A stretch of 64,000 bases of DNA. It comes from Gloeomargaritales cyanobacterium VI4D9 (GTDB taxonomy: Bacteria > Cyanobacteriota > Cyanobacteriia > Gloeomargaritales > Gloeomargaritaceae). The stretch lies in the NCBI GenBank assembly GCA_927797885.1, contig OV696605.1, forward strand, positions 2,083,157 through 2,147,156, given 5' to 3'. Position 1 is the first letter of the stretch, and the number at the start of each line of letters is the position of its first letter. Position numbers and translations under genes: made by a program. A model generated the notes under the pieces. The model was given only the letters and a program-made list of their open reading frames with translations. It had not been told where the DNA came from and ran no database searches. Positions 1,342 through 52,669 of this stretch are shown piece by piece.

Positions 1342-1563
1342 GGACACCTCTATAGCTAGGTAGGTTAAGGTTGTCACCTTAAGATTCTGGGAAACCAATG
1401 TGGGGCTACGCCCAGCGACCCATATCATGTCAACCTTTGTATGCTCAGCTATATTAATTCGCAACCATTGCGAATGACCCCTGCGTTATTGATAATTGCC
1501 AACAAGAGAATCGGGCTTCCAAACCTGCCGTGTAAGTACAAAAATCAATAAATAGAGGTGCCC
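1342..1563. repeat. R4-type repeat with R1-like ends
   Basis: A 222-bp block starting GGACACCTCT and ending AGAGGTGCCC. The right half (about 1467-1560) is the reverse complement of segments near 12463-12545 and 52571-52650, sharing GGCAATTATCAATAACGCAGG on one strand. The ends match the termini of the IS5-like element at 27307-29666, so this looks like a non-autonomous derivative. An 80-codon ORF across it is not a gene. Confidence 0.65.
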
Positions 1564-12189: not shown

Positions 12190-12468
12190 AACAGCCAAGT
12201 TGGATTAGCCTGGCTTTGTTCAATTAAAACACAAGTCAAAGGGTATCCATTTGAGGTTTTGCTGCCTGAAGGTTTCGCAGTAAAAAGTGCCATTTTATCT
12301 GACCAGGTGAAAAGCCTGGACTGGCAAGCAAGGAAAGCGGAATTTAGTTGTAAGTTACTACCCAAAAAATTCAATGAAGTTATCAAGAAATTAAACACAT
12401 TAATTCATGAGCAACTGTACAATGAAAATAAACTGTTGAACCTCTATTTATTGATTTTTGATTGATTT
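12190..12468 (+). pseudogene. MazF/PemK toxin C-terminal remnant
   Basis: In the same frame as the preceding GldG gene, just past its stop, the translation reads SQVGLAWLCSIKTQVKGYPF, then VLLPEGFAVKSAILSDQVKS, LDWQARKAEF and KKLNTL. This is the C-terminal half of a MazF-type endoribonuclease (QVKGYPFEV and SDQVKSLDW are characteristic). The N-terminal half, with its start and first catalytic residues, is missing, and the last codons run into repeat R4. No MazE gene is nearby. It is a dead fragment, perhaps left by a deletion that joined it to the ABC operon. Confidence 0.75.
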
Positions 12469-12568
12469 TTGTACTTACACAGCAGGGCTGGAAGCCCCAT
12501 TCTTTCGTTAGCAATTATCAATAACTCAGGGATCATTCGCAATAGCCGTGAATTATATAGAGGTACCC
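12437..12568. repeat. R4 repeat copy
   Basis: Bounded by GAACCTCTATTTATTGAT and AGAGGTACCC. The interior is homologous, in opposite orientation, to 1467-1560 and parallel to 52571-52669, sharing GCAATTATCAATAAC and GTACTTACAC. It supplies the last codons and stop of the mazF remnant. Confidence 0.65.
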
Positions 12569-21556: not shown

Positions 21557-22317
21557 GGCCGAAACAAATGCCGATGCTGTGGGTGGTACAACTGGGAACG
21601 GGTCACCCCCGCCCCAAACACCGGGCTGACCACATACAGGGTGGTGCGGGTCAAATGCTCCCGGTGGGTCACGGCGGCCATTTGCGTCAAAGGCACCAAC
21701 CAAATGCGTTCCTGGGGCCAACCCAACCGGTGACAGACCGCCACCAGGGTATCCGGGGGGTAATGTTTTTGTAATTCTGCCTGCGCCTGATCCACCAAGC
21801 GGGCACTGAGATACAGCCCCAGGGTGGCTCGGTGAGCCGCCAAATCCGCCAAATTTTCGGGCATGGGGGTGATGCCAGGGGTGCGGGTGAGGATCACCGT
21901 CTGTACCAATTCCGGCACCGTCCATTCTGTCGTTAATCGTGCCGCCGCCAACTGCATTGCCCCCACGCCGGGGATAATTTCCACCCCAATTCCCGCCCCG
22001 TGCAAGGCTTGGATTTGCTCATAAATTGCCCCGTACAAACTCACATCCCCGGAATGCAACCGTAGCACCAATTTGCCCGCCTGCACCCGCTCAATCATCA
22101 GGGGCACGATGGTTTCTAGGGTCAAATTTTTGGTGGGGATGCGTTCACAATCCGCCCGGGTCAACGCCACAATGCCTGGGGGGATGAGGGAATCCGCATA
22201 AAGCACCACGTCGGCGGTTTTAATCAGCCGCTCTGCCTGCACGGTCAACAATTCCGGGTCGCCCGGCCCTGCTCCTACTATGTAAATTTTGGGATATATT
22301 TTGGGCGTATCGGACAT
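21553..22317 (-). CDS. cobM: Precorrin-4 C11-methyltransferase
   Basis: SAM-dependent tetrapyrrole methylase of cobalamin synthesis, adding the methyl at C-11. It shows the family N-terminal motif IYIVGAGPGDPELLTVQAERLI, then VVLYADSLIPP, LRLHSGDVSLYGA (the SAM-contacting SGD loop) and GVEIIPGVGAMQLAAARL. The ATG starting MSDTPK gives 254 residues, matching the family; an upstream ATG would add nine residues. No other cob gene is adjacent, which is usual for the scattered cyanobacterial cobalamin pathway. Confidence 0.92.
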   Translation of the reverse strand: MSDTPKIYPKIYIVGAGPGDPELLTVQAERLIKTADVVLYADSLIPPGIVALTRADCERIPTKNLTLETIVPLMIERVQAGKLVLRLHSGDVSLYGAIYEQIQALHGAGIGVEIIPGVGAMQLAAARLTTEWTVPELVQTVILTRTPGITPMPENLADLAAHRATLGLYLSARLVDQAQAELQKHYPPDTLVAVCHRLGWPQERIWLVPLTQMAAVTHREHLTRTTLYVVSPVFGAGVTRSQLYHPQHRHLFRP

Positions 22318-22386
22318 GGCGGCAGATGCCTCCTCATTCACCATTCGCTTGCCAATGATACTCTAGGTTCTGTTGATCTTATGTAA

Positions 22387-22482
22387 GGGCACTTCTAAAA
22401 ATAGGTCGCAGGGGCATAGCCCCCGTCTCTGGTTTTCGATAGCCTGCGTGGCGTAAATGGGTGTAAATAAATAGAAGTGCCC
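22387..22482. repeat. R1 repeat copy, 96 bp
   Basis: Bounded by GGGCACTTCTA and TAGAAGTGCCC, with the internal palindromic core GGTCGCAGGGGCATAGCC and CCCCGTC, and a GGTTTTCGATAGCCTGCGTG segment shared with the copy at 26061. These ends resemble the IS5-like element termini at 27307 and 29666. No clean target duplication is visible at this copy. Confidence 0.8.
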
Positions 22483-22536
22483 TATAGCCAATTACAAGCT
22501 CAGTTAATTTATTGTGTGAACTAGGGAGGAACCGCA

Positions 22537-22824
22537 GTGGCTACGGAGATTCTGGAAAAGCCGAAAACCGGGGGACAGCGCAAACACGCCCCCAATTACA
22601 AAGTGCTGTTGCACAATGACGACCACAACACGATGGAGTATGTGGTGGAGTCGCTGATGAAAACCGTGCCCAGCCTGTCCTGGATGGATGCGGTGGCGGT
22701 GATGTTGGAGGCGCACAATACGGGGGTGGGGTTGGTGATTGTTTGCCCCCAGGAGCCAGCGGAATTTTATTGCGAGGGGTTACAGCGCCGGGGCTTGACC
22801 AGCACGATTGAGCCGGAATGCTAA
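22537..22824 (+). CDS. clpS: ClpS adaptor for ATP-dependent Clp protease
   Basis: Delivers N-degron substrates to the ClpAP-type protease (ClpC in cyanobacteria). The conserved core is YKVLLHNDDHNTMEYVVESL (the hydrophobic-pocket HNDDxN motif), then the Met/His-rich helix VMLEAHNTGVGLVIVCP. It starts at GTG with a strong ribosome site (AGGGAGGA, 22523-22530). The 95-residue length is usual. Its last 7 bp overlap the CPBP protease gene. Confidence 0.93.
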   Translation: MATEILEKPKTGGQRKHAPNYKVLLHNDDHNTMEYVVESLMKTVPSLSWMDAVAVMLEAHNTGVGLVIVCPQEPAEFYCEGLQRRGLTSTIEPEC

Positions 22825-23648
22825 AAGCGAGGTTGCGCCGGTTGGCGACTTTGCCATTCCCCCTGCGGTTGCTGGCATTTGTCCTGATTGTGTTGGCGTT
22901 TTGGTTGCCGGTGGTGCTGGTACTCTGGCCGTTTTTGGGTACGGGTGACCAGGTGCGCTCTCTGGCGACTACAATTCTTTATCTGGAATTTATCGGTATT
23001 TTGTACTGGTGGAGTTGGGGAGTGCGGGGGGAACGGCATCCCTGGGCTTACTACGGTTTGGCGTTGGAGGGACGCTGGGGGCGGGAAGCCCTGTGGGGTT
23101 GGGGGTTGGGGCTGGGGGCATTGATGGCATTACTCAGTATGCAGGCGCACTGGGGCTGGTTGTTGTGGCAGAACCGCCCGGAGACGCAAGTTATTCTGGA
23201 AGGGGTGGCGGTAGGACTGGGCGTGGCCTTGGCGGAGGAATGGCTGTTTCGGGGTTGGTTGTGGCAGGAGTTGCGCCAGGATTATGGGGTGGCGGGGGCG
23301 GTCTGGGGCAGTAGTGGGTTGTTTGCGTTGGCGCATTTTTTCCACCCCCCGCAGGTGCTTTTAGCCATTTGGCCGCAGTTTCCGGGGTTGATGTTGTTGG
23401 GGTTGAGTTTGGCCTGGGGACGGCTGGCCTGCGGGGGTCGCCTGGGGTGGCCGGTGGGGTTTCACGGGGGGCTGGTGGCGACCTACTACTGGGTGCGGGT
23501 GGGGGGCTGGCTGACGGTGCATCCCGATTTCCCCCCCTGGCTGACGGCGCTGGAGACGAATCCCTTGGCTAGTCCCCTGGGGTTGACGGCCATGCTGGCG
23601 GTGGCGGTCATGACCCGCTGGTGGGCGCAGAAAACCCTGCCGGGGTAA
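22818..23648 (+). CDS. CPBP family intramembrane metalloprotease
   Basis: Predicted Rce1-like membrane protease with about seven helices. The conserved motifs are present: EEWLFRGWLW (EExxxR), FALAHFFH with the second metal His, and a third block GFHGGLVATYYW. Bacterial CPBP proteins include bacteriocin-immunity and signalling proteases. It overlaps clpS by 7 bp, and its TAA overlaps the next ATG as TAATG, so the three genes form a tight set. Substrate unknown. Confidence 0.85.
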   Translation: MLKARLRRLATLPFPLRLLAFVLIVLAFWLPVVLVLWPFLGTGDQVRSLATTILYLEFIGILYWWSWGVRGERHPWAYYGLALEGRWGREALWGWGLGLGALMALLSMQAHWGWLLWQNRPETQVILEGVAVGLGVALAEEWLFRGWLWQELRQDYGVAGAVWGSSGLFALAHFFHPPQVLLAIWPQFPGLMLLGLSLAWGRLACGGRLGWPVGFHGGLVATYYWVRVGGWLTVHPDFPPWLTALETNPLASPLGLTAMLAVAVMTRWWAQKTLPG

Positions 23649-24052
23649 TGGCGCAACGGGGGTTCTGGCTGGGTCTGGGGTTACTGTTGACCGCTTGTGG
23701 CGTGCCCTTGGTGGCGGTTTCCCCAGAGTTGCTCCCCCTCACGTTGGAAGGACGGGCGGGTGGCGAGGTGGGCAGTGGGCAGTGTGGTTCTGTCAATCGC
23801 CGCCCCAACCATCGGTTGCAGATTGCGGAAGATATGGATTATCTGAAATTGGAGGTCAGGGATGCCCGAAACGTTACCCTCCTGGTCAAGGGGGCGGATG
23901 GCGTTTTGTGCGCGACCCCGATCCAAAATCGCCCAGCCCAGATTTCCGGGTATTGGCAGGCAGGGGTTTACGAAATTTTCATCGGCAGTCTTGACCCTGG
24001 GCAGTCCCCCCCCTACCGCCTGGTGGTCAGCGGGGCAAAATCGCTTCCGTGA
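23648..24052 (+). CDS. Putative lipoprotein, 134 aa
   Basis: The ATG overlaps the stop of the CPBP gene. The N-terminus MAQRGFWLGLGLLLTACGVP is a lipoprotein signal with lipobox LTAC. The mature domain is beta-rich (SVNRRPNHRLQIAEDMDYLK, YWQAGVYEIFIGSLDPGQSP), resembling small pre-peptidase-like beta domains, but I do not recognise the family. The last 26 bp overlap the convergent pentapeptide-repeat gene. Confidence 0.65.
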   Translation: MAQRGFWLGLGLLLTACGVPLVAVSPELLPLTLEGRAGGEVGSGQCGSVNRRPNHRLQIAEDMDYLKLEVRDARNVTLLVKGADGVLCATPIQNRPAQISGYWQAGVYEIFIGSLDPGQSPPYRLVVSGAKSLP

Positions 24053-25241
24053 GCAGGGCACTCTGTAAATCCGTGGCCTCCAGATAGGCATCCGTCAAAC
24101 AGGCACGGGTGAAATCCGTTCCCTGCACCAGCACTTCATAGAGGGAAGCCCCGCTCAAATCGGCACCCACTAGGCTGGCATTGGTCAAGTCCGCCTGGTT
24201 GAGAATTGCCCCGGTGAGATTGGCCCCGCCCAAATCCGCCCCCTGGAGCAATACCCCGGTCAAATCCCCACCCGCCAGATTCGCCTGGTGCAACCGTGCC
24301 CCCGTGAAAATCGCTCGGGACAAACGGGCATCGCTCAAATCCGCTTCGCTCAAGTTGGCCTCCCGGAGCGTCGCCTGTACCAGATTACTGCGCTGTAACA
24401 TCGCCTTGGACAGTTGCGCCCGGGTGAGGTTGGTGCGGCTCAAATCCACGCCGGTCAAATCCGCCCGGGTGAGGTCCGCCTCCGTGAGATTGGCATGGAT
24501 CAAATCCACCCGGTCTAAAATCGCCCCGTTCAGAACCGCCCGGGTGAGGTTCGCCCCCTTGAGGTTGGTGCGGCTGAAATCGGCGTTCATACATTGGGCT
24601 TCGGTCAAGTCCGCATTGGCAAGATTGGCTTCACTCAAAATCGCATCGCTCAAACCCGCCCCCACCAGTTTCGCCCCCTGCAAAATTGCCCGGCTCAAGT
24701 CCGCTTCAAAAAAATTGGCCTGACTGAGGTCACTGTGCCGCAGAGCCGCCCGTGTCAAATCCACCCGTGCCAAATTCGCTCCACACAGCCGGGCATCGTT
24801 CAAATTCGCCCCCGTTAAATCCGCCCCACTCAGGTCAGCCCCGCTCAAATCCGCCTCAATCAGCACCACCCGGCTCAAATTCGCCCCCACCAACTTGGCA
24901 CCCCGCAGATTCACCCCCACCAAATCCGCTTCGGTCAATTTGGCCTTGTTGAGAACCGCTCCCTCCAAATCCGCCTGGCTCAGATACGCCCCCACCAGTT
25001 TCGCCGCCGTCAGATTGGCTTCCCGCAGTACCGCCTGGCTCAAATCCGCTTCTCGCAAAATCGCCCGGCTCAAATCCGCCCGGGTCAAATTCGCCTGACT
25101 GAAGCCAATCCCCGCCAGCTTCGCCCGACTGAGATTGATCTCCCGCAGGATGGCCAAAGCCAAATCTGCCCCGTTCAGGTTCACCTGCCGGAAATCCCGC
25201 TCCCCATCCGCATACCGCCGTAACAGTTCGTCCGCATTCAT
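24027..25241 (-). CDS. Pentapeptide-repeat protein, 404 aa
   Basis: Nearly the whole protein consists of A(D/N)LxX repeats forming a long right-handed quadrilateral beta helix, after a short N-terminal helix (MNADELLRRYADGERDFRQV). Such proteins are abundant in cyanobacteria; functions include thylakoid-associated scaffolding and DNA mimicry, but none can be assigned. The start at MNADELL is favoured because RYADGERDFR is the standard cap preceding pentapeptide repeats (the MerR fusion at 96-1097 has RYMAGERDFQ). The nucleotide sequence is itself repetitive and produces long spurious ORFs on the other strand. Confidence 0.88.
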   Translation of the reverse strand: MNADELLRRYADGERDFRQVNLNGADLALAILREINLSRAKLAGIGFSQANLTRADLSRAILREADLSQAVLREANLTAAKLVGAYLSQADLEGAVLNKAKLTEADLVGVNLRGAKLVGANLSRVVLIEADLSGADLSGADLTGANLNDARLCGANLARVDLTRAALRHSDLSQANFFEADLSRAILQGAKLVGAGLSDAILSEANLANADLTEAQCMNADFSRTNLKGANLTRAVLNGAILDRVDLIHANLTEADLTRADLTGVDLSRTNLTRAQLSKAMLQRSNLVQATLREANLSEADLSDARLSRAIFTGARLHQANLAGGDLTGVLLQGADLGGANLTGAILNQADLTNASLVGADLSGASLYEVLVQGTDFTRACLTDAYLEATDLQSALLTEAILPR

Positions 25242-25264
25242 GGTTTTATGATACAGGGGATTGG

Positions 25265-26023
25265 TCAATTGCCCATAAGAGCCGCCCACACTGGCTCATC
25301 CATCTCAAAATTCGCACTCACGGTCTGCACATCGTCTAAATCCTCCAATACCTCTAACAACCGCAGTACCTTGCGCCCCCAGTCCGCATCCGTAATCGCC
25401 ACCGTGGTCGTGGGTTGCCAACGGGTCAGGGCTGTGCCCACCCGATACCCCTCCTTTTGCAGAGCCGTCACCACCGCCTCCAAAGCCAACGGTTCCGTGA
25501 GCAACGCCGCCGTGTCCCCGTCCCACTCGTACCCCGTTGCAGGCACCTGGAGCGCCGTCGCCAGCAGGTCATCTTCATCCGTCACCCCCGGCAGTTCAAT
25601 CCAGCCCACCTGGGTAAACATCCAGCCCACACAGCCGGTTTCCCCCAAATTGCCCCCGTATTTATTAAACGCCGCCCGAATCTCCCCCGCCGTCCGGTTG
25701 CGGTTATCCGTCAGGGCTTCGATCAACACCGCCACTCCCCCCGGCGCATAGCCCTCGTAACGCACCGCCTCCAAACTATCCGCATCCGCCCCCAACAGTC
25801 CTGCCCCCTTGGCAATCGCCCGTTCGATATGCTCCTGGGACATCCCCGCCGCCTTAGCCTTCTCCACCGCCGTCCGCAGGCGAAAATTAGCCGCCGGGTC
25901 AGGTAACCCCGTCCGTGCCGCCACGATCATCTCCCGTGATAATTTGGCAAAAACCTGTCCCTTGAGGGCATCCACCCGCGCTTTTTGACGTTTGATATTC
26001 GCCCACTTACTATGTCCCGCCAT
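25265..26023 (-). CDS. YebC/PmpR family transcription-translation factor
   Basis: A 252-residue YebC-family protein: the hallmark N-terminus MAGHSKWANIKRQKARVDALKG, then ANFRLRTAVEKAKAAGMSQ, YEGYAPGGVAVLIEALTDNR and the GNLGETGCVGWMF block. YebC proteins were described as transcription regulators, and recent work links them to ribosomes stalled at prolines. The ATG at 26023 starts the conserved MAGHSKW; upstream codons are discarded. It ends 23 bp from the pentapeptide gene on the same strand. Confidence 0.93.
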   Translation of the reverse strand: MAGHSKWANIKRQKARVDALKGQVFAKLSREMIVAARTGLPDPAANFRLRTAVEKAKAAGMSQEHIERAIAKGAGLLGADADSLEAVRYEGYAPGGVAVLIEALTDNRNRTAGEIRAAFNKYGGNLGETGCVGWMFTQVGWIELPGVTDEDDLLATALQVPATGYEWDGDTAALLTEPLALEAVVTALQKEGYRVGTALTRWQPTTTVAITDADWGRKVLRLLEVLEDLDDVQTVSANFEMDEPVWAALMGN

Positions 26024-26060
26024 GATTCTGCCTACATTGACAATCATTAATTTTAATTTA

Positions 26061-26191
26061 GGGTACCTCTATTTATTTACACCCATTGAAGTTTATCTCG
26101 CTGAAATGCCCATATTAATCACTACGCCACGCAGGCTATCCAAAACCAGAGACGGGGGCGGTGCCCCTGCGACCTATTTTTAGAAGTGCCC
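26061..26191. repeat. R1 repeat copy with 4-bp target duplication TTTA
   Basis: Bounded by GGGTACCTCT and AGAAGTGCCC. The flanking TTTA at 26057-26060 is repeated at 26192-26195. The interior has GCAGGCTATCCAAAACCAGA and the GC core GGGGGCGGTGCCCCTGCG. The 4-bp duplication length equals that of the IS5-like element in the nearby nest. Confidence 0.85.
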
Positions 26192-26222
26192 TTTAATTAC
26201 TAATTCATTTAGGATAATTTAA

Positions 26223-26345
26223 GACACCTCTATTTATTTGCACCACCAGAAAGTCATCTCACCGGAAGGCTCATATTAATACAGCCGTGCCATGCAGGCT
26301 ATCCAAAACCAGAGCCAGGGCAATGTCCGTGCAAACCCTGTTTAG
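26223..26345. repeat. Degenerate R1 repeat
   Basis: Begins GACACCTCTATTTATTTGCACC and keeps the GCAGGCTATCCAAAACCAGA interior, but the GC core has decayed (GGGCAATGTCCGTGC) and the right end has lost its R1 terminus. Confidence 0.6.
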
Positions 26346-26397
26346 GATTAAATGTTATATATTTATAGGCACAAGTGTTGAATCCTGCAATAAAACT

Positions 26398-27306
26398 TTA
26401 CATATTTAGGCGTGGGACGACCCGATTGAGCCAATGGACAAAATTCCACTCCTGCCGTATTAAGATTTGTATATATCGGAACTTATCTGCCAATTTACTT
26501 CCGTACATCCGTGGAACTTTTAACAGTTGCAATATCAAGTAAACTATTAAAATTACATAAATTTGAATGGTAATTCCATTCAAATTTTTACTCATCATTT
26601 TATCGAGCTTTAAGTTCATCTTTAGAAATTTCCATAGTACCTCTATCGCCCAGCGTTGTCTATAGGCTTCCCCTATCTCTTCATTACTCATTACATCCTC
26701 AGGAATATTGGTAGCTAAATAATAGTCTACTTTCTGTTGAACATTGCCAAAACAAACTACTCTCGCCTTACCTCGTTCTGTGGTGATATGATAGTTTTCA
26801 TCCCATTTCCAATTCGACTTAATACGGATAATAAAAAGGGCATCATTTTCGATAAATTGTTCAAATACTTTGTGACTGCAAAACCCTCTATCCCCGACTG
26901 CGACTCCATTTTCCGGTAGCATTTTCACAATATCTTCACCAAAATTAATCTCATGTGCCTGTCCAGGACTAACAATTAAATGACCAGTAGATTTCGTATC
27001 TTGATTCAAAGTGGTTATTAACTTTACTTGGCGATAGCCTTGGAGCCAAAATAACTTACTCATCAGCGGTATTACGGTAGCATCAAAAGGACATAAAACC
27101 AACCTCTTTTCAGGATGAGCTTCCTCAATATAATGCAATAATTTATGATAAAGATGCATAAAAATTTGTGGGTCTCTTGTCTTGTTCGCCTTAGAAAACG
27201 TGGATAAGTCAACCTTAATGCCCGCATGATTTAATTGGTAAAATAAGTCCCGTAAACTGTTGATTCCTTTGTCTAAAATGCCAGCAAACCAGATTGAACA
27301 AAATAA
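26398..27306 (-). pseudogene. IS A transposase, C-terminal part (IS4-like)
   Basis: Carries the C-terminal ~300 residues of a 330-residue DDE transposase identical, as far as I can read, to the intact copy at 28440-29432 (ISC). The open frame stays readable to 27312, but the 5' part of the gene was moved to 29667-29756 by insertion of IS B, so the N-terminal ~30 codons are separated. DDE features: DATVIPLMSKLFW (first Asp), VGDRGFC (second Asp), and YRQRWAIEVLWKFLK (Glu in the YREK-like box). Confidence 0.9.
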
Positions 27307-27447
27307 GGGCACCTCTATTTATTCAAAATATGAGAACGAAACACAAAAACAGCATAGCATTGCTCAGTACTTTTTTGTACTAAGATGACTGGGTTTTATA
27401 GATTGCTGTAGATATGATTGAAAAGAGACTTAGTAGGGGGTCAAAAC

Positions 27448-28352
27448 TCACAGATTATCGGCCAGGGACTGCCGCTCCCAAAACGCATAACGGCGGAAAT
27501 TATAAGCCAGATTTTTCAACCCAATTGCCGCTTCTACTCTGGTTTTACCAATCAGACGCATGAATTTACCCCCAAGACACATCACCCACTGACCAAATAC
27601 GTGTTCCACCTTGGCTCTCACTTTAGATTTGATGCGATTCTTTTCATTTTGCTCTGCGGTTAGGGGCTGATTTCGGTAGCCTTTTTCATGGATGTGACTG
27701 GTAAATCCAATCCTGGCTAACGTCCATTCTAAATCCGTGCTGTGATAGGCACTATCTCCCCAGATTTCCGACCCATCAATATCCACCAGTTGACTGAATA
27801 CTTGTGAGTCATGCACGGAGGCATCCGTGACCACATAATGACGCACAAAACCATATTTTACATCCACACTGATATGATTTTTATAGCCAAAATAGCTGAC
27901 ACCATTTTTCTTTACCCAACGGGCATCTCTATCCTTTTGCCGTAAAACCTGGGGTTTTTCCTCCCATTGCTTAGGAATTTTCCCTTCCTTTACTTCTTGA
28001 TTTTCTTGCCGAGTATTTCGTTGGACTGGCACGGGAATGAGAGTGGCATCCACAATCTGACCAACTTCGACAATATATCCTTTTTCTCTCAGGTAATTAT
28101 CAAAGTGAGCAAATACTTCTTTGACTAGATCGTGCTTGGCGAGATTATCCCGAAATAGCCAGACCGTTTTGGCATCAGGGATAGCGTCTTCGATACCCAA
28201 TCCTAGGAATTCCATGAACGAGATACGGTCATTCACTTGAAACTCGAGTTCATCGTCACTAAGGGCATACATTTGTTGGAGAATCAACAATTTAAACATC
28301 ACAATGACGTCGGTGGGTTTTCGACCCGCATTACTCTTTCTTTCCTTGTCAT
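27448..28352 (-). pseudogene. IS B transposase, C-terminal 5/6
   Basis: Encodes the bulk of an IS5-family transposase: GRKPTDVIVMFKLLILQQMY at the 5' side, then QIVDATLIPVPVQRN (first Asp), EIWGDSAYHS (second Asp) and RIKSKVRAKVEHVFGQW (Glu in the R..VEH.F box). The N-terminal 45 codons are at 29461-29596 on the other side of IS C. Precise excision of IS C plus one CCTTGTCAT copy would restore an uninterrupted 343-codon frame, so the inactivation is recent. Confidence 0.9.
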
Positions 28353-29460
28353 CAGAAGTGTTGAAAGGTAGGTAAAGGCAGAAAAAGAGGGGTCAAAATA
28401 TGGTATTCTAATTCATATAAACCAAAACATGAAACAACTATGAAATTCAATTCTTTTCCCGGGATTGTCAAATTTTTACTCAAAGACCTGCCAACTAATG
28501 ATTATCCAGTTCTAAATTCTCGCTTATTTTGTTCAATCTGGTTTGCTGGCATTTTAGACAAAGGAATCAACAGTTTACGGGACTTATTTTACCAATTAAA
28601 TCATGCGGGCATTAAGGTTGACTTATCCACGTTTTCTAAGGCGAACAAGACAAGAGACCCACAAATTTTTATGCATCTTTATCATAAATTATTGCATTAT
28701 ATTGAGGAAGCTCATCCTGAAAAGAGGTTGGTTTTATGTCCTTTTGATGCTACCGTAATACCGCTGATGAGTAAGTTATTTTGGCTCCAAGGCTATCGCC
28801 AAGTAAAGTTAATAACCACTTTGAATCAAGATACGAAATCTACTGGTCATTTAATTGTTAGTCCTGGACAGGCACATGAGATTAATTTTGGTGAAGATAT
28901 TGTGAAAATGCTACCGGAAAATGGAGTCGCAGTCGGGGATAGAGGGTTTTGCAGTCACAAAGTATTTGAACAATTTATCGAAAATGATGCCCTTTTTATT
29001 ATCCGTATTAAGTCGAATTGGAAATGGGATGAAAACTATCATATCACCACAGAACGAGGTAAGGCGAGAGTAGTTTGTTTTGGCAATGTTCAACAGAAAG
29101 TAGACTATTATTTAGCTACCAATATTCCTGAGGATGTAATGAGTAATGAAGAGATAGGGGAAGCCTATAGACAACGCTGGGCGATAGAGGTACTATGGAA
29201 ATTTCTAAAGATGAACTTAAAGCTCGATAAAATGATGAGTAAAAATTTGAATGGAATTACCATTCAAATTTATGTAATTTTAATAGTTTACTTGATATTG
29301 CAACTGTTAAAAGTTCCACGGATGTACGGAAGTAAATTGGCAGATAAGTTCCGATATATACAAATCTTAATACGGCAGGAGTGGAATTTTGTCCATTGGC
29401 TCAATCGGGTCGTCCCACGCCTAAATATGTAAAGTTTTATTGCAGGATTCAACACTTGTG
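28353..29460 (+). mobile_element. IS C: intact IS4-like element, 1108 bp
   Basis: Imperfect 13-bp inverted ends CAGAAGTGTTGAA and TTCAACACTTGTG (complement CACAAGTGTTGAA, one mismatch). The 9-bp target duplication CCTTGTCAT flanks it. It contains a single intact transposase gene. The element is the same as IS A around it, but inverted. Confidence 0.93.
28440..29432 (+). CDS. IS4-like transposase of IS C (intact)
   Basis: A full 330-residue DDE transposase starting MKFNSFPGIVKFLLKDLPTN. The catalytic Asp pair is in CPFDATVIPL and GVAVGDRGFC, and the Glu in QRWAIEVLWKFLK, where YRQRW...E is the IS4-type YREK region. The last residues are FVHWLNRVVPRLNM. Together with its intact ends and duplication, this copy may still be active. 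It is the only intact transposase in the window. Confidence 0.92.
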   Translation: MKFNSFPGIVKFLLKDLPTNDYPVLNSRLFCSIWFAGILDKGINSLRDLFYQLNHAGIKVDLSTFSKANKTRDPQIFMHLYHKLLHYIEEAHPEKRLVLCPFDATVIPLMSKLFWLQGYRQVKLITTLNQDTKSTGHLIVSPGQAHEINFGEDIVKMLPENGVAVGDRGFCSHKVFEQFIENDALFIIRIKSNWKWDENYHITTERGKARVVCFGNVQQKVDYYLATNIPEDVMSNEEIGEAYRQRWAIEVLWKFLKMNLKLDKMMSKNLNGITIQIYVILIVYLILQLLKVPRMYGSKLADKFRYIQILIRQEWNFVHWLNRVVPRLNM

Positions 29461-29596
29461 CCTTGTCATATATGGTTTCTAATATGGGTCGGAAATCTTC
29501 CCAGTTAATATTTTCATTGAGCCACTTCAGCATGGGCTTTTTCTGATTGAGTTTTTCCCGCCGCTCTTGCTCATCCCAAAATCCTTTTTGACCCAT
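29461..29596 (-). pseudogene. IS B transposase, N-terminal 45 codons
   Basis: Starts MGQKGFWDEQERREKLNQKK and runs to ETIYDKA, the DNA-binding start typical of IS5-family transposases, before being cut by the IS C insertion. It is in frame with 27448-28343 once IS C and one 9-bp duplication are removed. Confidence 0.85.
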
Positions 29597-29666
29597 TTTT
29601 TCTCTCCACGTCGTTAATACTAATTATCTCACAAATCCCTCCCAAAATCAATTAATAGAGGTGCCC

Positions 29667-29756
29667 ATAAGCGAGAATTTAGAACTGGATAATCATTAGT
29701 TGGCAGGTCTTTGAGTAAAAATTTGACAATCCCGGGAAAAGAATTGAATTTCATAG
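29667..29756 (-). pseudogene. IS A transposase, displaced N-terminal part
   Basis: The complement reads ATG AAA TTC AAT..., encoding MKFNSFPGIVKFLLKDLP to NSRL, identical to the start of the IS C transposase. It was separated from the rest of its gene (26398-27306) by the IS B insertion. The IS A terminus lies at 29841. Confidence 0.9.
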
Positions 29757-29873
29757 TTGTTTCATGTTTTGGTTTATATGAATTAGAATACCATATTTTG
29801 ACCCCTCTTTTTCTGCCTTTACCTACCTTTCAACACTTCTGATTTATAGGGTCTTTAAGTCAAGTGTCCAGTG

Positions 29874-30290
29874 ATGTCCCATATTTATCTGGCGGCTCCC
29901 TTATTTAGTTTGGCAGAACGAAATTTTAATCAATCACTTGTGGACTATCTAACTGAGCGGGGATTGCACGTCTTTTCACCATACAAAGAATGTGATGGAC
30001 TGGTGGGTATTGATATTTATAAAACCTGTCTTAGGGGAGTCTCAACCGCTTCTATCTTAGTGGCTATTTTAGATGGAGCTGATGCCGATAGTGGCACCTG
30101 TTGGGAATGTGGTTATGCTTCAGCAAAAGGTATCCCTATCGTGGCAGTGCGTACTGATTTTAGAAGCACTGGTGATACCAATGGTTTTAATGCCATGCTT
30201 TACTACAGTGCTACTGTCGTTGTGGAAGGTACTGATAATCTGTTTGCAAGAATCTTCCAAGCTGTAAAACAATTGCGACATCCTAGTTAG
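29874..30290 (+). CDS. Nucleoside 2-deoxyribosyltransferase-like protein
   Basis: A 138-residue protein of the nucleoside deoxyribosyltransferase fold: N-terminal HIYLAAPLFSLAERNFN (the YLAGP/F strand-loop), then LVAILDGADADSGTCWECGYASAKG, where the SGTxxExGYA motif carries the catalytic Glu. Family members exchange bases on deoxynucleosides or hydrolyse modified nucleotides. The ATG at 29874 is preferred to the GTG before it. It begins 24 bp after the target duplication of IS A, and its AT-rich composition and isolation suggest transfer. It could be a cargo of the island or an independent salvage gene. Confidence 0.78.
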   Translation: MSHIYLAAPLFSLAERNFNQSLVDYLTERGLHVFSPYKECDGLVGIDIYKTCLRGVSTASILVAILDGADADSGTCWECGYASAKGIPIVAVRTDFRSTGDTNGFNAMLYYSATVVVEGTDNLFARIFQAVKQLRHPS

Positions 30291-30451
30291 TATTCAAAAA
30301 TTCTTAAACTAAATCCAAAACTAAATCTAATGCTTGAATTTAATCTTTAATTTATGATGTACTACTGACTTGTTGAGTATTTTTGATCCCAACAGTATTA
30401 AGAATTGTTACAGCCCAATGCGGTTTAATTGATCCATTAGTAACTTATAAC

Positions 30452-30518
30452 CATGGGGTAGCGCCTCCGTCCTTGGTTCTGGGAAATCTCTGTTCACTAA
30501 TCAAGTAGGATTGCCATA
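30452..30518. repeat. R2 repeat fragment
   Basis: Retains the CCTCCGTCCTTGGTTCTGGG and TTGCCATA right half of R2; the left end is lost. The rest of the 30291-30571 gap is AT-rich with nothing else recognised. Confidence 0.55.
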
Positions 30519-30571
30519 GGTGCGAAAAATGAGTCGCTAGAAGCTCTTTCCAAGGTAGTTTGGAGGGTGAC

Positions 30572-32431
30572 ATGGATTCACTACCTAAAAACTCATTGAC
30601 CAAATTCGCTTTATGGACAGATAACAGACCTCGCTGGTGGATTGGATTATCTATACCGTTTGCCGCCGTAATGACTTTAATAACAGCCGTAACCCCTGGA
30701 TTACCAACTAGAGAAATTTACAAATCATATTATGTCCATATGCTCCCAAGAGTACAAACGGTTGATTTCAATATGTTGTTCTATATGTTACCTGCCGCCT
30801 TATCGAATGCGATGGCTGGGCATCATGTCGAAGAAATAAAAAATCAACCATCTCAATATAGGCAAATTTCACAGAACATCCAAAATATACTCGATAGCAA
30901 TTATGGGGTTTTTTACCTTTTAGTGACTCACGAAAATATTAAGCCTAGTGACATTGAGAGTGGTAGAGATGAGCATATTTTATATGAAACTAAAAATCAA
31001 GGACTGACTGACATTTTAGATAAGGGTTATATTGTCCATTCGGATTTGATTTTATATCCACAGCCTGCCTGTAGCACCGTAAGTTATCCTGATCCCAAAG
31101 CTGAACGTCCAGAAGTCAATAGGGAATGCCAAGCTAAAATTGAGAAAGCTATTGCTGAAGGACGAACTAAGGTACTAGGCAGAGTTCACTACGTTAAAGG
31201 TAAAACACCCAGTTTTTGGAGAATCGCTCAAAATTTTAACAAAAACCCCTTTAGTGAGGACAGTGGTTATCATTTCATCCGCCATTATTTAGGTTTTACA
31301 TTTATTGCCTTTTTCTTGCTCTATTGGTTCGTTCATTTTCTACTGAAGCATACAGCAACTCAACATAAATTGAACGAAGCCATTAAAAAGTCTTTAGAAA
31401 ATGAGCTAGTAGCCACTGACTTTGCAAAACGACTGGCTGAAGAATCTGGCAAGCGTAGATTGGCGGAGGAACAAAATCGAAGGATTGAAGCAGAAAACAG
31501 ACTCTTAAGACTCATGGAATTTGATCAAGTTTTTCGTCAACAAATTGATGCAATTTTTACATCTGAATTGGGCAACACTTTACAAAGATTAGATGCTGAA
31601 TACCTTGCCATGTTTAAGCGTTTGGAAACAGATGTTCAAAATATCACGCATGACATTCGTAAAGCCCCTCTACTCTGTTCATTAGATGTAATCAAAGATG
31701 CACTTGAAAAAATTAGGCGAACAGATTCAAGGGATGAAAAAATAGATTTACTCATTGAAACAATCACAAAAATTGATGATAGCATTCAAATCATCAACCA
31801 GGTAATTAATAACCTAGATGAAATGATTTCTTTAGAAAAAAGAACATATAGGTTAAGTGATTTACTCGACGAATTTGAAAGAAATTTACCCAATAATGTT
31901 AAAGATATACCACTATCTTTTATTCGTGAAAACTGTGACTACTGCATCAATATCAACCGTTGGCATTTCAGAAGTATATTAAAAAATATTCTATACAACT
32001 CTCGTAAGGAATTAATCAGACTGAAGATAAAGAAAGTACGAATTGGCGAAAGTTTCCAACCTCAAATACAGATTTTATGTTCCGTAATTAAAGATAAAAA
32101 TGAAGCTCAGATTGTCATTGAGGATAATGGGGGTGGTATTCCTGAACAATATTTAGGTAAACTTTATCAAACACCGGAACGGTTAAATCAGTCAAATGGT
32201 AGGACAAGTGGCAATGGAAGTATGATTGTTTTTGCCTATTTATCATTTCATAATGGGAAAGCAAAAGTTGAGAATCTTAAAGAGAGTGATGATGATAATG
32301 CTAAAACTATTGGTGCAAGAGTGACAATTTCCTTTCCAATTGTTGAATGTCCAACCGAATGTCTGAATGAGAAACGTTGTTCACAGTTGAATGAAGGAGG
32401 TACACATCATGGCTCACTTTCTTCTTGTTGA
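30572..32431 (+). CDS. Membrane sensor histidine kinase
   Basis: A 619-residue kinase. From ATG 30572 (ribosome site GGAGGGTGA) come TM1 (about 22-42), an extracytoplasmic sensor of ~190 residues with no domain I recognise, TM2 (about 239-257), a long charged coiled coil (about 265-345), the phospho-acceptor region ITHDIRKAPL with candidate His360, and an HATPase domain: N-box NILYNSRKEL (472-481), G1 IEDNGGGIP (517-524) and the G2-like TSGNGSMIVFAY. The H-box is unusual, closest to the HDLRNPL type. It overlaps the receiver-RelE gene by 23 bp. The AT-rich composition differs from the flanking core genes. Confidence 0.85.
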   Translation: MDSLPKNSLTKFALWTDNRPRWWIGLSIPFAAVMTLITAVTPGLPTREIYKSYYVHMLPRVQTVDFNMLFYMLPAALSNAMAGHHVEEIKNQPSQYRQISQNIQNILDSNYGVFYLLVTHENIKPSDIESGRDEHILYETKNQGLTDILDKGYIVHSDLILYPQPACSTVSYPDPKAERPEVNRECQAKIEKAIAEGRTKVLGRVHYVKGKTPSFWRIAQNFNKNPFSEDSGYHFIRHYLGFTFIAFFLLYWFVHFLLKHTATQHKLNEAIKKSLENELVATDFAKRLAEESGKRRLAEEQNRRIEAENRLLRLMEFDQVFRQQIDAIFTSELGNTLQRLDAEYLAMFKRLETDVQNITHDIRKAPLLCSLDVIKDALEKIRRTDSRDEKIDLLIETITKIDDSIQIINQVINNLDEMISLEKRTYRLSDLLDEFERNLPNNVKDIPLSFIRENCDYCININRWHFRSILKNILYNSRKELIRLKIKKVRIGESFQPQIQILCSVIKDKNEAQIVIEDNGGGIPEQYLGKLYQTPERLNQSNGRTSGNGSMIVFAYLSFHNGKAKVENLKESDDDNAKTIGARVTISFPIVECPTECLNEKRCSQLNEGGTHHGSLSSC

Positions 32432-33404
32432 AGATAGACTTGATATTTGCGAAATTTGGCGCAACTGGCTCCTTGAAGAAGGTCACACATGTCAGTGGGC
32501 TAACACGTATGAAGATGCTATTCAAAAAATTTGGTTAAGTGAGCAAAACGATGGAGAACCGTTTGATATGATTTTGCTAGATCATGAATTAGACGGAGGT
32601 TTTTTCGGAATTAATGTTTTGGAGGAAATTTCTGAGGAACTAGGTCAGGATTATAAAGAACATCGCTTTGTTGTTATTACTGCTTCTCATGACATGGGAC
32701 TGGTTAGCATTTACAGCCAAAGAGGAGCTTTAGGTTATCTAATCAAACCTACTTCAAGAGAATCATTCTTTGCCACGATTATTAATGCTTTAGAACGCAG
32801 ACGCATTTATGTTGAAAACAAGGAGGATTGGGAAGCCGCAGTTAGAGTGCTTGAGGACTTAGAGTTACTGCCTAAAATTGAGCAAATGCAGAGGGATTTA
32901 GAGGCATTTCAAGCCTTAAGGGAAACCCATAATAAGTTATTGAAAGACTTAAAAAAAGCCGGAGGGAATGAAGCTAAAATACGAGAAAGTTATGCCTATG
33001 CCTACCAAGCAATTACGAATAATACTGCCACAATAGAATCTATAATACCCTGTTTGCAACCATTTTTTATTACTGAATCTTTTTGGGAAGATATTGAATA
33101 TACCTTCGATCATGAACGCTTAAAGTTTTATGGTTTACAGTCCTACCTATTGAGAATCGGGAATGATCCCAATGCCTACCGGATCAAGCATTTAAGCGGT
33201 GATGCCCCCGGTCACTACGAATATCGAACAGGCATAACCCATCGTCTTTATTTTCGGCGGCAAGATGGTCATATTGTTTTAGAACGATTTGGTCACAAGA
33301 GTAAACAAAAAGAGATATTGCATTTTTTACATGAGACAGGGGGCGGAGAGGTTTATAAAGCTCATGAAATAGTGAGTAAAATCAAGGACACCTCTACCTA
33401 TTGA
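32409..33404 (+). CDS. Response-regulator receiver fused to RelE/ParE-like domain
   Basis: A 331-residue protein with ribosome site GAAGGAGGT ahead of ATG 32409. The receiver is at residues 1-130: acidic VED (8-9), phospho-acceptor Asp58 in MILLDHEL, VVITAS (88-93) and Lys113 in GYLIKPTS. A coiled coil follows (about 145-185). The C-terminus (about 225-305), NAYRIKHLSGDAPGHYEYRT then GITHRLYFRRQDGHIVLERF then GHKSKQ, resembles the RelE/ParE beta sheet with a late basic/His segment. This suggests phosphorylation-gated RNase or gyrase-directed activity, or a degenerate binding domain. The gene overlaps the kinase by 23 bp and is clearly its partner. Its last codons (DTSTY) lie in an R1-type repeat end. 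Confidence 0.8.
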   Translation: MAHFLLVEDRLDICEIWRNWLLEEGHTCQWANTYEDAIQKIWLSEQNDGEPFDMILLDHELDGGFFGINVLEEISEELGQDYKEHRFVVITASHDMGLVSIYSQRGALGYLIKPTSRESFFATIINALERRRIYVENKEDWEAAVRVLEDLELLPKIEQMQRDLEAFQALRETHNKLLKDLKKAGGNEAKIRESYAYAYQAITNNTATIESIIPCLQPFFITESFWEDIEYTFDHERLKFYGLQSYLLRIGNDPNAYRIKHLSGDAPGHYEYRTGITHRLYFRRQDGHIVLERFGHKSKQKEILHFLHETGGGEVYKAHEIVSKIKDTSTY

Positions 33405-33565
33405 TTTGTGGGTAGTGCTATCCAAGTAATTGTTTGCTATTACAATCTTACTACAGGGCACTTCTAAAAATAGGTCGCAGGGACGTAGCCCCCGTCTGTG
33501 GTTCTCAATAATATTGGCATTCCAGCGAGATAACCTTCTGGTAATGCAAATAAATAGAGGTTCTC
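33386..33565. repeat. R1 end followed by R1 copy with TACA duplication
   Basis: An isolated R1/R4-type left end GGACACCTCTACC begins at 33386, inside the end of the receiver gene. A complete R1 copy occupies 33456-33565 (GGGCACTTCTA to AATAGAGGTTCTC) with the 4-bp duplication TACA at 33452-33455 and 33566-33569. The core reads GGTCGCAGGGACGTAGC and CCCCGTC. Confidence 0.8.
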
Positions 33566-33729
33566 TACAATCAGCACCATGCCTTCCCAACGGAGTGGAT
33601 GCCATTCTAGACGGTAGGCTCTCTAACTTCTCGGTAGTAAATTCCCGCCAAGCCTCATTTCATGGATATTTGAGGAATGTCTAACCCTACATTCACCCAT
33701 GACACTTCCCCCTGGAAAAGTAAAGCCAC
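33566..33729. other. Non-coding gap, no recognisable feature
   Basis: Between the R1 copy and the R3 block I see no gene, repeat member or structure that I can support. Short ORFs here show no family pattern. Confidence 0.4.
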
Positions 33730-33937
33730 CTAGAGTCTTTTAAGTAGTCATGGGATGCAGTTGAACCTCACTTGCCGTAATTTAAAGTTTGATCATGTAA
33801 AGCCTTTAGAATAATCGAGGCTTTTTTGTATCCTTTAATTAATCAAGGGTATGAACCCACGAGGTAAACCTCGGGAGTTAGTCCGCCCTAGAAGGGCGGG
33901 GTATTCGACCCAACGAGATAAAATAAATAGACTGTAG
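33730..33937. repeat. R3 repeat interrupted by a palindromic IS200/IS605-like end
   Basis: The R3 sequence begins near 33730 (GAGTCTTTTAAGTAGTCATG), runs to CCTTTAATTAA at about 33842, and resumes at about 33920 as AAATAAATAGACTGTA. Between them lies a ~77-bp insert with two perfect hairpins: CGAGGT-AA-ACCTCG (33860-33873) and CCGCCCT-AGA-AGGGCGG (33883-33899). The latter kind of hairpin is typical of IS200/IS605 right ends, so the insert may be a remnant or palindromic derivative of such an element. Confidence 0.7.
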
Positions 33938-34095
33938 CACTACTATTTGCCGCATCTTTCCGGGAGGTAGTGCCAAGGAGTACTAGAACGTGCCATCTAG
34001 AGAACCACCTCAATAAATCTTTCCCAATATTGACTCTCTTTTCTGTCTCTAAAAAACCAATCTCATCCTCTTTATCCTGCATAAGAAACACGACC

Positions 34096-34222
34096 TATAG
34101 CAATCCTACTTGATTTGCATTAGCTTGCGTGCCGTAGGCATACAAAAATTTTTCAGAACCATACACGGCAGGTGCTTCTTTTACGGGGGCGGTGCCCCTG
34201 CGACCTATTTTTAGAAGTGCCC
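34096..34222. repeat. Chimeric repeat: R2 left end, R1 right end
   Basis: Starts with the R2 terminus TATAGCAATCCTACTTGAT and ends with the R1 terminus CCTATTTTTAGAAGTGCCC. The shared GC core GGGGGCGGTGCCCCTGCG sits between. It appears to be a recombinant of the two families. The remaining sequence up to 34387 (34223-34387) holds the upstream region of the CHAT gene without a clear promoter. Confidence 0.7.
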
Positions 34223-34387
34223 ATAAGATCAACACGACCTAAGAGTGCTCATGTTTTAGTTGGATAGTCTATTTCCTGAAAGTAGCTATTCTCGGAGCTG
34301 TCTATTGACTTATTTTTTTGGATGTTATAAAGTGCGAACAACTAATGATCTACATCTAACTATTTGTGTGGTGTTAGGGGGTTTGAT

Positions 34388-37300
34388 ATGCGTCATTTAC
34401 TTTGTGGGACAGTTTTAGGTGGGTTAATTGTATTACAGGGCGGTGTAGGTTTAGCCCAGCGGATCACCCCAGCAAATGATGGCACGGGTACGCAGGTTAA
34501 TCGGAGTGGGAATCGTTATGACATCACGGGGGGACGGCAGGCGGGGCGCAATCTATTCCACAGTTTTGGGCAGTTTAATGTGGATGCGGGGAATATTGCG
34601 AATTTCTTGGCTACCCCTAATTTGCACAATATCCTGGCACGGGTGACGGGTGGTTCTGCTTCCTACATCAACGGGTTAATTCAAGTAACGGGCGGCAATC
34701 CCAATCTCTATCTGATGAACCCGGCGGGGATTGTGTTTGGGCAAGGGGCGAGCTTGAATGTGCCTGCTTCGTTTATTGCCACCACCGCTGACCGCATCCT
34801 GTTTCCCGGTGGGAGTTTTAATGCTTCCGGGGTGAATGACTACAGTAAATTGGCAGGGGAACCGATTGGGTTTGCTTTTGACCGCAAAGACCCGGCGGCG
34901 ATTGTCAATGAAGGGAATTTAAGCGCCAATCCGGGGCAAAGTGTGAGTTTGATTGCCGGACAGGTGATCAATACAGGAAAGGTACAAGCACCGGGGGGGA
35001 ATATCACCCTTGCCGCTGTGCCGGGGGAAAATCTAGTGCGGTTGTCGCAGACGGGGCAATTGTTAAGTTTGGAATTTAACCCCCAGCAGGCCGCCCAAAT
35101 GATGGACAGCCAGGGCAATATTCCCACCACCCGTTTACCGGAATTGCTCACCGGGGGTGGGGTAACCACGGTTACCCAAAATAGTAATGGTACGGTGCGT
35201 GTGGCGGGTTCCGATTTGCAAATTCCCACAGGCACGGGCACGACAATTGTTTCTGGGGTGTTAGATGTTTCAAGTACGAGTCAAACCGGGGGTAATGTGG
35301 GGGTATTTGGCACCCAAATTGCTCTAGCAAAAAGTGAAATTAATGCCTCAGGATTTACGGGTGGGGGTGAGATTTTAATCGGGGGTGAATTTCAGGGGAA
35401 AGGGACGCAACCCAACGCCCAATATACGTTTGTGAGTCGTGATTCTCAATTAACTGCCGATGCGGTTAACTCTGGAAATGGGGGCAGGGTGATTGTGTGG
35501 GCGGATAAGGCAACGGATTTTCGGGGCAGTATTACCGCCAAAGGGGGACAGAATGGGGGTGATGGGGGATTTGTAGAAGTATCAGGGAAAGAGAGTTTAG
35601 CATTCACAGGGAATGTGGATACGTCAGCACCTAAGGGCAAGACGGGTACCCTCCTGCTTGATCCGGCGAATATCTTTATTGTGCCGGGGATTGGGGTAGA
35701 TAATGGGGAATTACCAGTGATTTTATTTAGTGACCGTCCCGGGGAAAGCTTAACTATTGGAGCTACTAGTCTCATTTCTCAACTATCCAGCAATGATGTC
35801 GTACTCCAGGCAACCAATAATATCACTTTTAACGCTAATTTATCCGGTTCTTTTGGAGATACCACCCTGTTTGCCGATGCGGGTAATACGATCACAGTGA
35901 ATAATCAAATTTCTGGTTCTAGTCTTAGTTTGGATTTCTTTGCTGGTAATACTATCAATGCCAACGCCTTGATTTCTCTTTCTAATGGGGAGGTGGCGTT
36001 CAGTGCGGGAAGAAGTATCTCTACGGCCAATATTTTCGCAACGGAAGGTATCTTTTTGAATGCAGGCGGTAGTATCAATACCGGTAACCTACAAAGCTTT
36101 GGGGATGTCTTCATTGGTAGCAATTCCGGCAATATCCAAACTGGTAATATCACCACTCAAGGCGGAGATATTGGTATTGCTACTTTCGGGGGAGGAATCA
36201 GAACTGGAATTTTGCGATCCAGTGCTTCCTCTTCTGGGGATGCTGGTGATATTTTCCTGTTTGCTCCTAGGGATATTCAGACTGGTTATATTCAAGCGGA
36301 AGCTATCAATGGGCGGGGGGGCGATGTCACGATTTTCGGTTTCTCGAATGTACGGGTGCAAGGGGTCAGTTCCTTTGGGTTTAGTATCAGTACCAGAGGG
36401 GGAGCAGGGGGAGGAGAAATTTTTATTCTGCACGGGGGACAAAATTTCTTTACGATTGGCGATGCCAGTGTCAATGGTACATCTGGCGCAATTACTACCG
36501 GTCAGTTTACCCTCTCGCCGTTCCAGAAGTTTTACTCCCGATTCTTAGGAAACATTAGTATTATTTCCCTGTTTGATGGCGGCATTGGTAGTGATTTATT
36601 TGGCACCGAATTTTCCGGCCTCGGTTTGGATTCCGGTTTGGATGCCATTGATGAGGTAGCCTTTGATGATCTTGATTTTACGCGGCTGGCACTGGCGAAT
36701 GCTTTGGCTGCTGGGGATTATGCAGCAATTTTGTCCTTAGATGATTTGTTTGGCAATGAATTTAGTCGCTTTTTAGGAGTCAAAGCAGTTAACAATTTTG
36801 ATTCGGTTGAGTCCGTCGGCAATATGCTCAGTCGTCTGGCCAAAGAAACCGGTAAAAAACCAGCAATTATTTACCTAATGGTGGATGAACGGCAGTTAAG
36901 CATTGCCGCGATTACGCCGGGGAGTCGGGCGGGGGTAGCGAGTCCGGGGATTCTCAAGTTTGATCCGGGTTTATTCACATCTACGCAACCGTTGCAATAT
37001 ATCGCCCAGCAGGAAGCCAAAATCCAGCCGGTGGTGCGGGGGATTCCTGAAGCGAAACGTTCTCAGTTGATGCCGGTGGTGGAACGGTTCCTCACTGCCC
37101 TCAAAGACCCCCGCCAGCGCACCAGTACTGCCTATTTGAAAGATGCCCAGCAGTTGTATCGGTGGCTAGTAGCTCCCATTGAAAGCGAACTACAAGCCCA
37201 GGGGATTGATACCCTGCTGTTCTCAATGGACAATGGCTTGCGGTTATTGCCGGTGGCGGCTCTGCATGATGGCAAGCAGTTTTTGGTGGAAAAATACAGC

Positions 37301-52570: not shown

Positions 52571-52669
52571 CAGGATTTCCCCCTGAAGGACGGAAGCCCC
52601 ATTCTCTCCTTGGCAATTATCAATAACGCAGGGGTCATTCTCAATAACCATAAATTAATAGAGGTGCCC
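52571..52669. repeat. R4 repeat fragment
   Basis: Contains GGCAATTATCAATAACGCAG and ends TTAATAGAGGTGCCC, matching 12463-12568 and, inverted, 1467-1563. Confidence 0.6.

What the first reader, a model, noticed from the sequence alone, without database searches (positions are those of the whole stretch)
26057..26195. R1 repeats are probable non-autonomous passengers of the IS5-like element
R1 copies here (TTTA duplication) and at 33456-33565 (TACA duplication) share the GGGCACYTCTA ends and the 4-bp duplication length of IS B (27307-29666). The IS B transposase is broken by IS C, so mobilisation in this genome needs another intact copy.
Basis: partly seen in the sequence, partly recalled or inferred. 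Interest (0 to 1): 0.6.

Follow-up and report, generated by a model that had tools for sequence, protein, structure and literature searches.

The report
Miniature transposons sharing an IS5-element's ends
The short repeats are ordinary miniature transposons that carry only the landing ends of an IS5-type jumping gene; this genome holds many intact copies of that jumping gene, but the repeats are older than its recent burst and also fill a related genome where only its wreckage was found.

Summary
The R1 elements at 26061-26191 and 33456-33565 are real: 131 and 110 bp, inverted ends, exact 4-bp duplications. GGGCACYTCTA occurs 281 times in the 3.16-Mb genome, against 1 for the reversed control. 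IS B is a 1243-bp IS5-family element (NF033581). The window copy is broken by IS C, but 17 of 21 full-length copies elsewhere encode an uninterrupted 343-aa transposase. IS B and R1 share 4-bp, AT-rich target duplications, 17 of 21 and 13 of 22 full-length copies. So do two further miniature families found here, R2 and R3. R1 and IS B each have a matching empty site in a same-genus genome. R1 is therefore a type II MITE of an IS5_4-type transposase. "Passenger of IS B" is only partly supported. One R1 end matches IS B at 18 of 20 positions, but the other matches distant IS5_4 relatives better. Relative G003 carries many R1 copies, 12 of 23 examined with duplications, yet only a truncated IS B relic and no IS5_4 transposase. 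R1 is older than the present IS B burst; IS B is the only candidate helper found here. Known kind of element; no transposition was tested.

The parts
26057..26195 (+). R1 copy (131 bp, 26061-26191) with TTTA target duplication on both sides
   Evidence: lies just upstream of the minus-strand ORF 25265-26047
26222..26345 (+). second, degraded R1 relative in the same orientation; right end lost
33452..33569 (-). R1 copy, 110-bp form (33456-33565) with TACA target duplication
22387..22482 (-). R1 copy with internal deletion (96 bp), both ends exact, no 4-bp duplication
34183..34222 (+). R1 right-end fragment (40 bp, identical to the 26061 copy over that stretch)
27307..28352 (-). IS B (IS5 family, NF033581), nucleotides 198-1243 of the 1243-bp element; left duplication ATAA at 27303-27306
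29461..29666 (-). IS B, nucleotides 1-206; right duplication ATAA at 29667-29670
28353..29460 (+). IS C (IS4 family, NF033592), inserted in IS B with a 9-bp duplication; breaks the IS B transposase
   Evidence: duplication length read from the overlap of the two IS B pieces
26357..27306 (-). part of an older IS C copy into which IS B inserted (rest at 29667-29843)
   Evidence: inverted repeats I1 and I2
1446..1563 (+). R2 miniature element (second family with IS B-like ends)
12458..12568 (-). R2 miniature element, one end truncated
52592..52669 (-). R2 fragment with exact GGGCACCTCTA end

Best explanation
R1 is a type II MITE: a 110-131 bp non-coding element with imperfect inverted ends (GGGCACCTCTATTTATT at one end, GGGCACTTCTAAAAATAGG at the other). 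An IS5_4-type (NF033581) DDE transposase recognises the ends, cuts the element out and inserts it into AT-rich sites, which are duplicated over 4 bp. In this genome the only intact transposase of that type found is IS B, present in about 20 uninterrupted copies, so IS B is the likely present helper for R1, R2 and R3. R1 is older than the present IS B burst and was very probably built up by an earlier IS B relative, whose relics remain in related genomes. Shown: ends, duplications, copy numbers, intact IS B copies, empty sites, relics and absence of intact IS5_4 transposases in relatives. Inferred: recognition in trans, and that IS B moves R1 today.
For: 281 exact ends against 1 control. Exact 4-bp duplications: IS B 17 of 21, R1 13 of 22 (two of these share one duplicated site), R2 24 of 47, R3 5 of 16; slid controls give 0.1-0.3 expected each; TTAA is the commonest duplication for IS B, R1 and R2. 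R1 left end matches the IS B right end at 18 of the first 20 positions. 17 of 21 full-length IS B copies encode 343 uninterrupted residues; in the whole genome 20 of 56 transposase matches run from residue 1 or 2 to 343 without a stop. Distant IS5_4 elements in other phyla carry GGGCACCTC[GT]A-type ends, several with 4-bp duplications. Empty site with a single copy of the target for one R1 (2515109) and one IS B (14265) in G003. Two R1 copies at unrelated sites are identical over 110 bp (948462 with a duplication, 1844421 without). Across this genome and seven relatives, ends are plentiful in the five with IS B sequence or relics (281, 207, 88, 107, 47) and nearly absent in the three without (1, 1, 0).
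Against: Similarity between R1 and IS B is confined to the ends. The R1 right end matches IS B less well than distant relatives. R1 is abundant and carries duplications in G003 (12 of 23 copies examined), where no IS5_4 transposase is detected, so the present IS B is not needed to explain most copies. Nearest-neighbour identity is lower for most R1 copies than for R2, so most R1 copies may be old and immobile. The relics in G004 and G007 are short. No transposition was observed.
Confidence: 0.8

Rival explanations
1. R1 is a dead (fossil) MITE. It was moved by an extinct IS5_4 relative, and the present IS B does not recognise it; only R2, whose ends resemble IS B more closely, is a current passenger.
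For: R1 right end matches distant IS5_4 relatives at 17 of 20 positions and IS B less well; R2 has many identical copies while most R1 copies differ by several percent or more. R1 is widespread in G003 and G004, which lack an IS5_4 transposase. R2 was found in G003 only, 15 matches, among seven relatives.
Against: Two R1 copies at unrelated sites are identical over 110 bp, one with a duplication. One 110-bp-form R1 has an empty site in G003, so it inserted after the split or was precisely lost there. Duplications are intact in 13 of 22 copies.
Confidence: 0.3
2. R1 is moved by another transposase still present in this genus that was not recognised here.
For: 55 of 281 exact ends were not in the DNA examined; only DDE_Tnp_1 and IS5_4 models were searched genome-wide.
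Against: None of the 31 unassigned ends had a recognisable complete transposase gene of another kind next to it (best frames read by eye; one end lies 15 bp outside an intact IS B). The other IS elements whose ends were read (IS C; the 331-aa and 187-aa elements of G003) end in CAGAAGTGTTGAA, CAGTAGTGTTGAA and TATAGAACCTG.
Confidence: 0.1
3. R1 is not a mobile element but a conserved structured RNA or regulatory repeat.
For: R1 copies lie between genes and contain a G+C-rich inverted core.
Against: Exact 4-bp duplications far above control, an empty site in a relative, and no Rfam match in 22000-35000.
Confidence: 0.02

Closest known systems
Type II MITEs of prokaryotes (review PMC10969869: passages and section 2.2 read)
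   Same: Short, non-coding, inverted ends, target duplications, similarity to the autonomous element confined to the ends, more copies than the autonomous partner, movement in trans inferred
   Different: Here several miniature families (R1, R2, R3) share one end type; one partner-less relative genome (G003) has many R1 copies with duplications
IS5 family, NCBIfam group NF033581 (transpos_IS5_4)
   Same: IS B transposase scores 270.5 bits against a cut-off of 140; distant members have GGGCACCTC[GT]A-type ends and, where readable, 4-bp duplications
   Different: R1 encodes no transposase; the closest outside homologue found for IS B is 61% identical
Chunjie and QMITE families (as described in PMC10969869 section 2.2)
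   Same: Tens of copies, variable length, many truncated copies without ends
   Different: Different hosts and ends; not compared by sequence here

Membership tests
MITE (type II) | Short (under about 400 bp) and without a transposase gene | tested here: met
   110-155 bp, no ORF of 100 aa or more inside the window copies
MITE (type II) | Terminal inverted repeats | tested here: met
   GGGCACCTCTATTTATT / GGGCACTTCTAAAAATAGG consensus over 22 full-length copies; core 11 bp inverted, inner part not
MITE (type II) | Target-site duplication of fixed length | tested here: met
   13 of 22 full-length copies, 4 bp, slid control 0.26 expected
MITE (type II) | Dispersed multicopy with insertion difference between genomes | tested here: met
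   50 matches in own genome, not all full-length; 22 full-length in examined DNA; one empty site in G003 of three R1 sites tested, the other two giving no hit across the junction
MITE (type II) | Similarity to the autonomous element confined to the ends | tested here: met
   R1 and IS B consensus ends agree over 17 bp and then diverge
MITE of IS B specifically | Both ends match IS B better than any other element | tested here: not met
   Left end: IS B best, 18 of 20. Right end: IS5_4 elements of L238 and L155 best, 17 of 20; IS B not among the best eight
MITE of IS B specifically | Mobilised in trans by IS B transposase | not testable with these tools
   Needs an assay
IS B: IS5 family NF033581 | Transposase over the curated cut-off | tested here: met
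   270.5 bits, cut-off 140
IS B: IS5 family NF033581 | Complete element with inverted ends and target duplication | tested here: met
   1243 bp, 4-bp duplication in 17 of 21

The most novel reading that the evidence does not exclude
In this genus the miniature families outlive their transposase: R1-type elements were built up by an IS5_4 element that has since decayed in at least three genomes of the genus, persisted there as orphans, and in this genome were joined by a fresh burst of near-identical IS B copies, with R2 amplified afresh (and perhaps R1 reawakened).
Probability: 0.35. Interest if true: 0.5.

Novelty: new member of a known kind. Interest (0 to 1): 0.3.

Why it matters
It explains much of the intergenic repeat load of a small cyanobacterial genome: at least three miniature families and about 20 intact helper copies share one end type. 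The genus offers a natural series (intact helper, decayed helper, none) for asking how miniature elements persist after their transposase dies. It is otherwise an ordinary IS/MITE pair.

Tried and rejected
Counting the 11-mer with two mismatches inside the window: not above chance; replaced by exact genome-wide counts. Ten exact hits at 117-120 kb were rejected as a coding repeat. The G003 multi-copy elements with 331-aa and 187-aa frames were considered as R1 helpers and rejected by their ends. IS C was rejected likewise. A fragment in G003 (L294) was considered as an internally deleted IS B; only the first 145 nt align in the right orientation, so it is called a truncated relic. G005 matches to R1 cover only the shared core (about positions 77-120), so G005 is not counted as an R1 carrier. 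A suspicion that the TACAGTC repeats derive from a TnsB transposon was dropped: no 3-6 bp duplications, 0 of 37. Empty-site test: six sites were sent (three R1, one R2, two IS B); two gave a continuous hit across the junction in G003, and four gave no hit across it. In G004 the R1 site tested holds a different miniature element. Literature: searches listed no paper on these elements in this genus; one review was read in passages and one section, the others only as listings.

Full report
Observation. The two R1 copies, their 4-bp duplications (TTTA, TACA) and IS B with its ATAA duplication are at the stated places. Two of the four R1 ends deviate from GGGCACYTCTA by one and two bases. Window-level counts of this motif with two mismatches are at chance, but genome-wide exact counts are not: 281 against 1 for the reversed control.

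Whole-genome survey. The window lies in a single-contig genome of 3,162,419 bp. R1 gives 50 matches at E 0.01 or better, with 40 of 510 first-look candidates scored, so this is a lower bound. IS B transposase gives 56 matches, many of them fragments. In the DNA examined (448 kb), which holds 226 of the 281 exact ends, BLAST assigns 63 ends to IS B, 46 to R1, 46 to a 121-bp family R2, 30 to a 120-bp family R3, 10 to a coding repeat, and leaves 31 unassigned. Many of the 31 read as further R1/R2/R3/IS B ends interrupted by other repeats, and none has a recognisable complete transposase gene of another kind next to it (by eye). R3 is a distant relative of R1.

IS B. The full element is 1243 bp; its transposase is IS5 family NF033581, 270.5 bits (cut-off 140). 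17 of 21 full-length copies in the examined DNA encode an uninterrupted 343-aa product. Sixteen copies are 99.5-100% identical to the reference and five are 90-95%; four of these five are broken. So there is an older decayed set and a recent burst. The window copy is split by IS C with a 9-bp duplication, and IS B itself sits in an older IS C copy.

Target duplications. Exact 4-bp duplications flank 17 of 21 IS B, 13 of 22 R1, 24 of 47 R2 and 5 of 16 R3 full-length copies; sliding one flank gives 0.1, 0.3, 0.3 and 0.1 expected. Full-length means BLAST ends within 3 nt; the window copy at 33456 falls outside this set although it has its duplication. Two R1 copies (1839291 and 1840067) share identical flanks and are one duplicated site. 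TTAA is the commonest duplication in IS B, R1 and R2.

Ends. Over the first 20 positions the R1 left end agrees with the IS B right end at 18, and the R2 ends with the IS B left end at 19 and 18. The R1 right end agrees best, at 17, with IS5_4 elements of L238 and L155, not with IS B. Ends of the GGGCACCTC[GT]A type flank IS B homologues in several phyla, some with 4-bp duplications (for example L144, L166, L172). In that call I read the best of many candidate pairs per locus, and some loci gave no such ends.

Relatives. Exact ends number 207, 88 and 107 in G003, G004 and G005 (same genus), 47 in G007 (same family), and 1, 1, 0 in G001, G002, G006. IS B relics exist in G003 (145 nt, 84%), G004 (106 nt, 79% and 71 nt, 83%), G005 (698 nt, 76%, with stops) and G007 (54 nt, 85%, and a 19-nt end), and no IS B match in G001, G002, G006. 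With model NF033581 only the own genome passes the cut-off among the eight; G005 has two sub-threshold pieces. R1 matches: 51 in G003, 51 in G004, 42 in G005 (core only), 1 in G001, none in G002, G006 and G007. In G003 12 of 23 R1-like copies examined have exact 4-bp duplications, in G004 1 of 5. R2 is in G003 (15 matches) and in none of the other six relatives.

Empty sites. Of six joined flanks sent against G003 and G004, one R1 site (2515109) and one IS B site (14265) gave continuous hits across the junction in G003 at 94% and 91%. Alignment shows one copy of the target (TGTG for TGTA, one substitution; ATTA) and no element. The other four gave no hit across the junction. At the same R1 site G004 carries a different miniature element.

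Recency. Several R2 copies at different sites are identical over 121 bp with different duplications. Among R1, one pair at unrelated sites is identical over the 110-bp form (one member without a duplication) and the best 131-bp pair is 96.9% identical.

Reading. R1 is a type II MITE (terms as in PMC10969869, section 2.2) of an IS5_4-type transposase. IS B is the only intact candidate helper found and can plausibly act in trans. R1's spread cannot be credited to the present IS B copies alone. The genus is probably Gloeomargarita: this is recalled from the 3,049,282-bp length of G004 and comes from no call.

Noticed in passing
G000:C1, e.g. 2353688, 224306, 2142266 (window about 59110): A 117-bp repeat with ends TACAGTCTTTT / TACAGTCTATTT, 37 nearly full-length copies in the DNA examined, no 3-6 bp duplication (0 of 37). 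It looks like a TA-target miniature element of IS630/Tc1 type (recalled, not tested).
   Followed up: partly
G000:C1:1752524-1753079 (L334): A 185-aa frame that resembles the N-terminal part of a TnsB transposase (by recall); apparently a relic.
   Followed up: partly
G000:C1:116500-121000 (L061): A long repeat protein gene with a 201-bp tandem period, which produces ten chance GGGCACTTCTA hits.
   Followed up: yes
G000:C1:1838567-1841712 (L021, L022): Two R1 copies 776 bp apart with identical flanks and identical duplications: a local DNA duplication, not two insertions.
   Followed up: partly
window 28353-29460 and genome-wide: IS C, an IS4-family element with about 60 near-identical 355-aa frames in this genome, is the most numerous intact transposase seen.
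   Followed up: no
window 26061-26191 and 25265-26047: The R1 copy sits directly upstream of a minus-strand gene that resembles YebC (recalled), and may lie between it and its promoter.
   Followed up: no
genome-wide intergenic DNA: A further repeat bounded by TATAGCAATCCTA shares the core GGTCGCAGGGGC..GCCCC with R1, so miniature families here exchange inner segments or carry nested copies.
   Followed up: no
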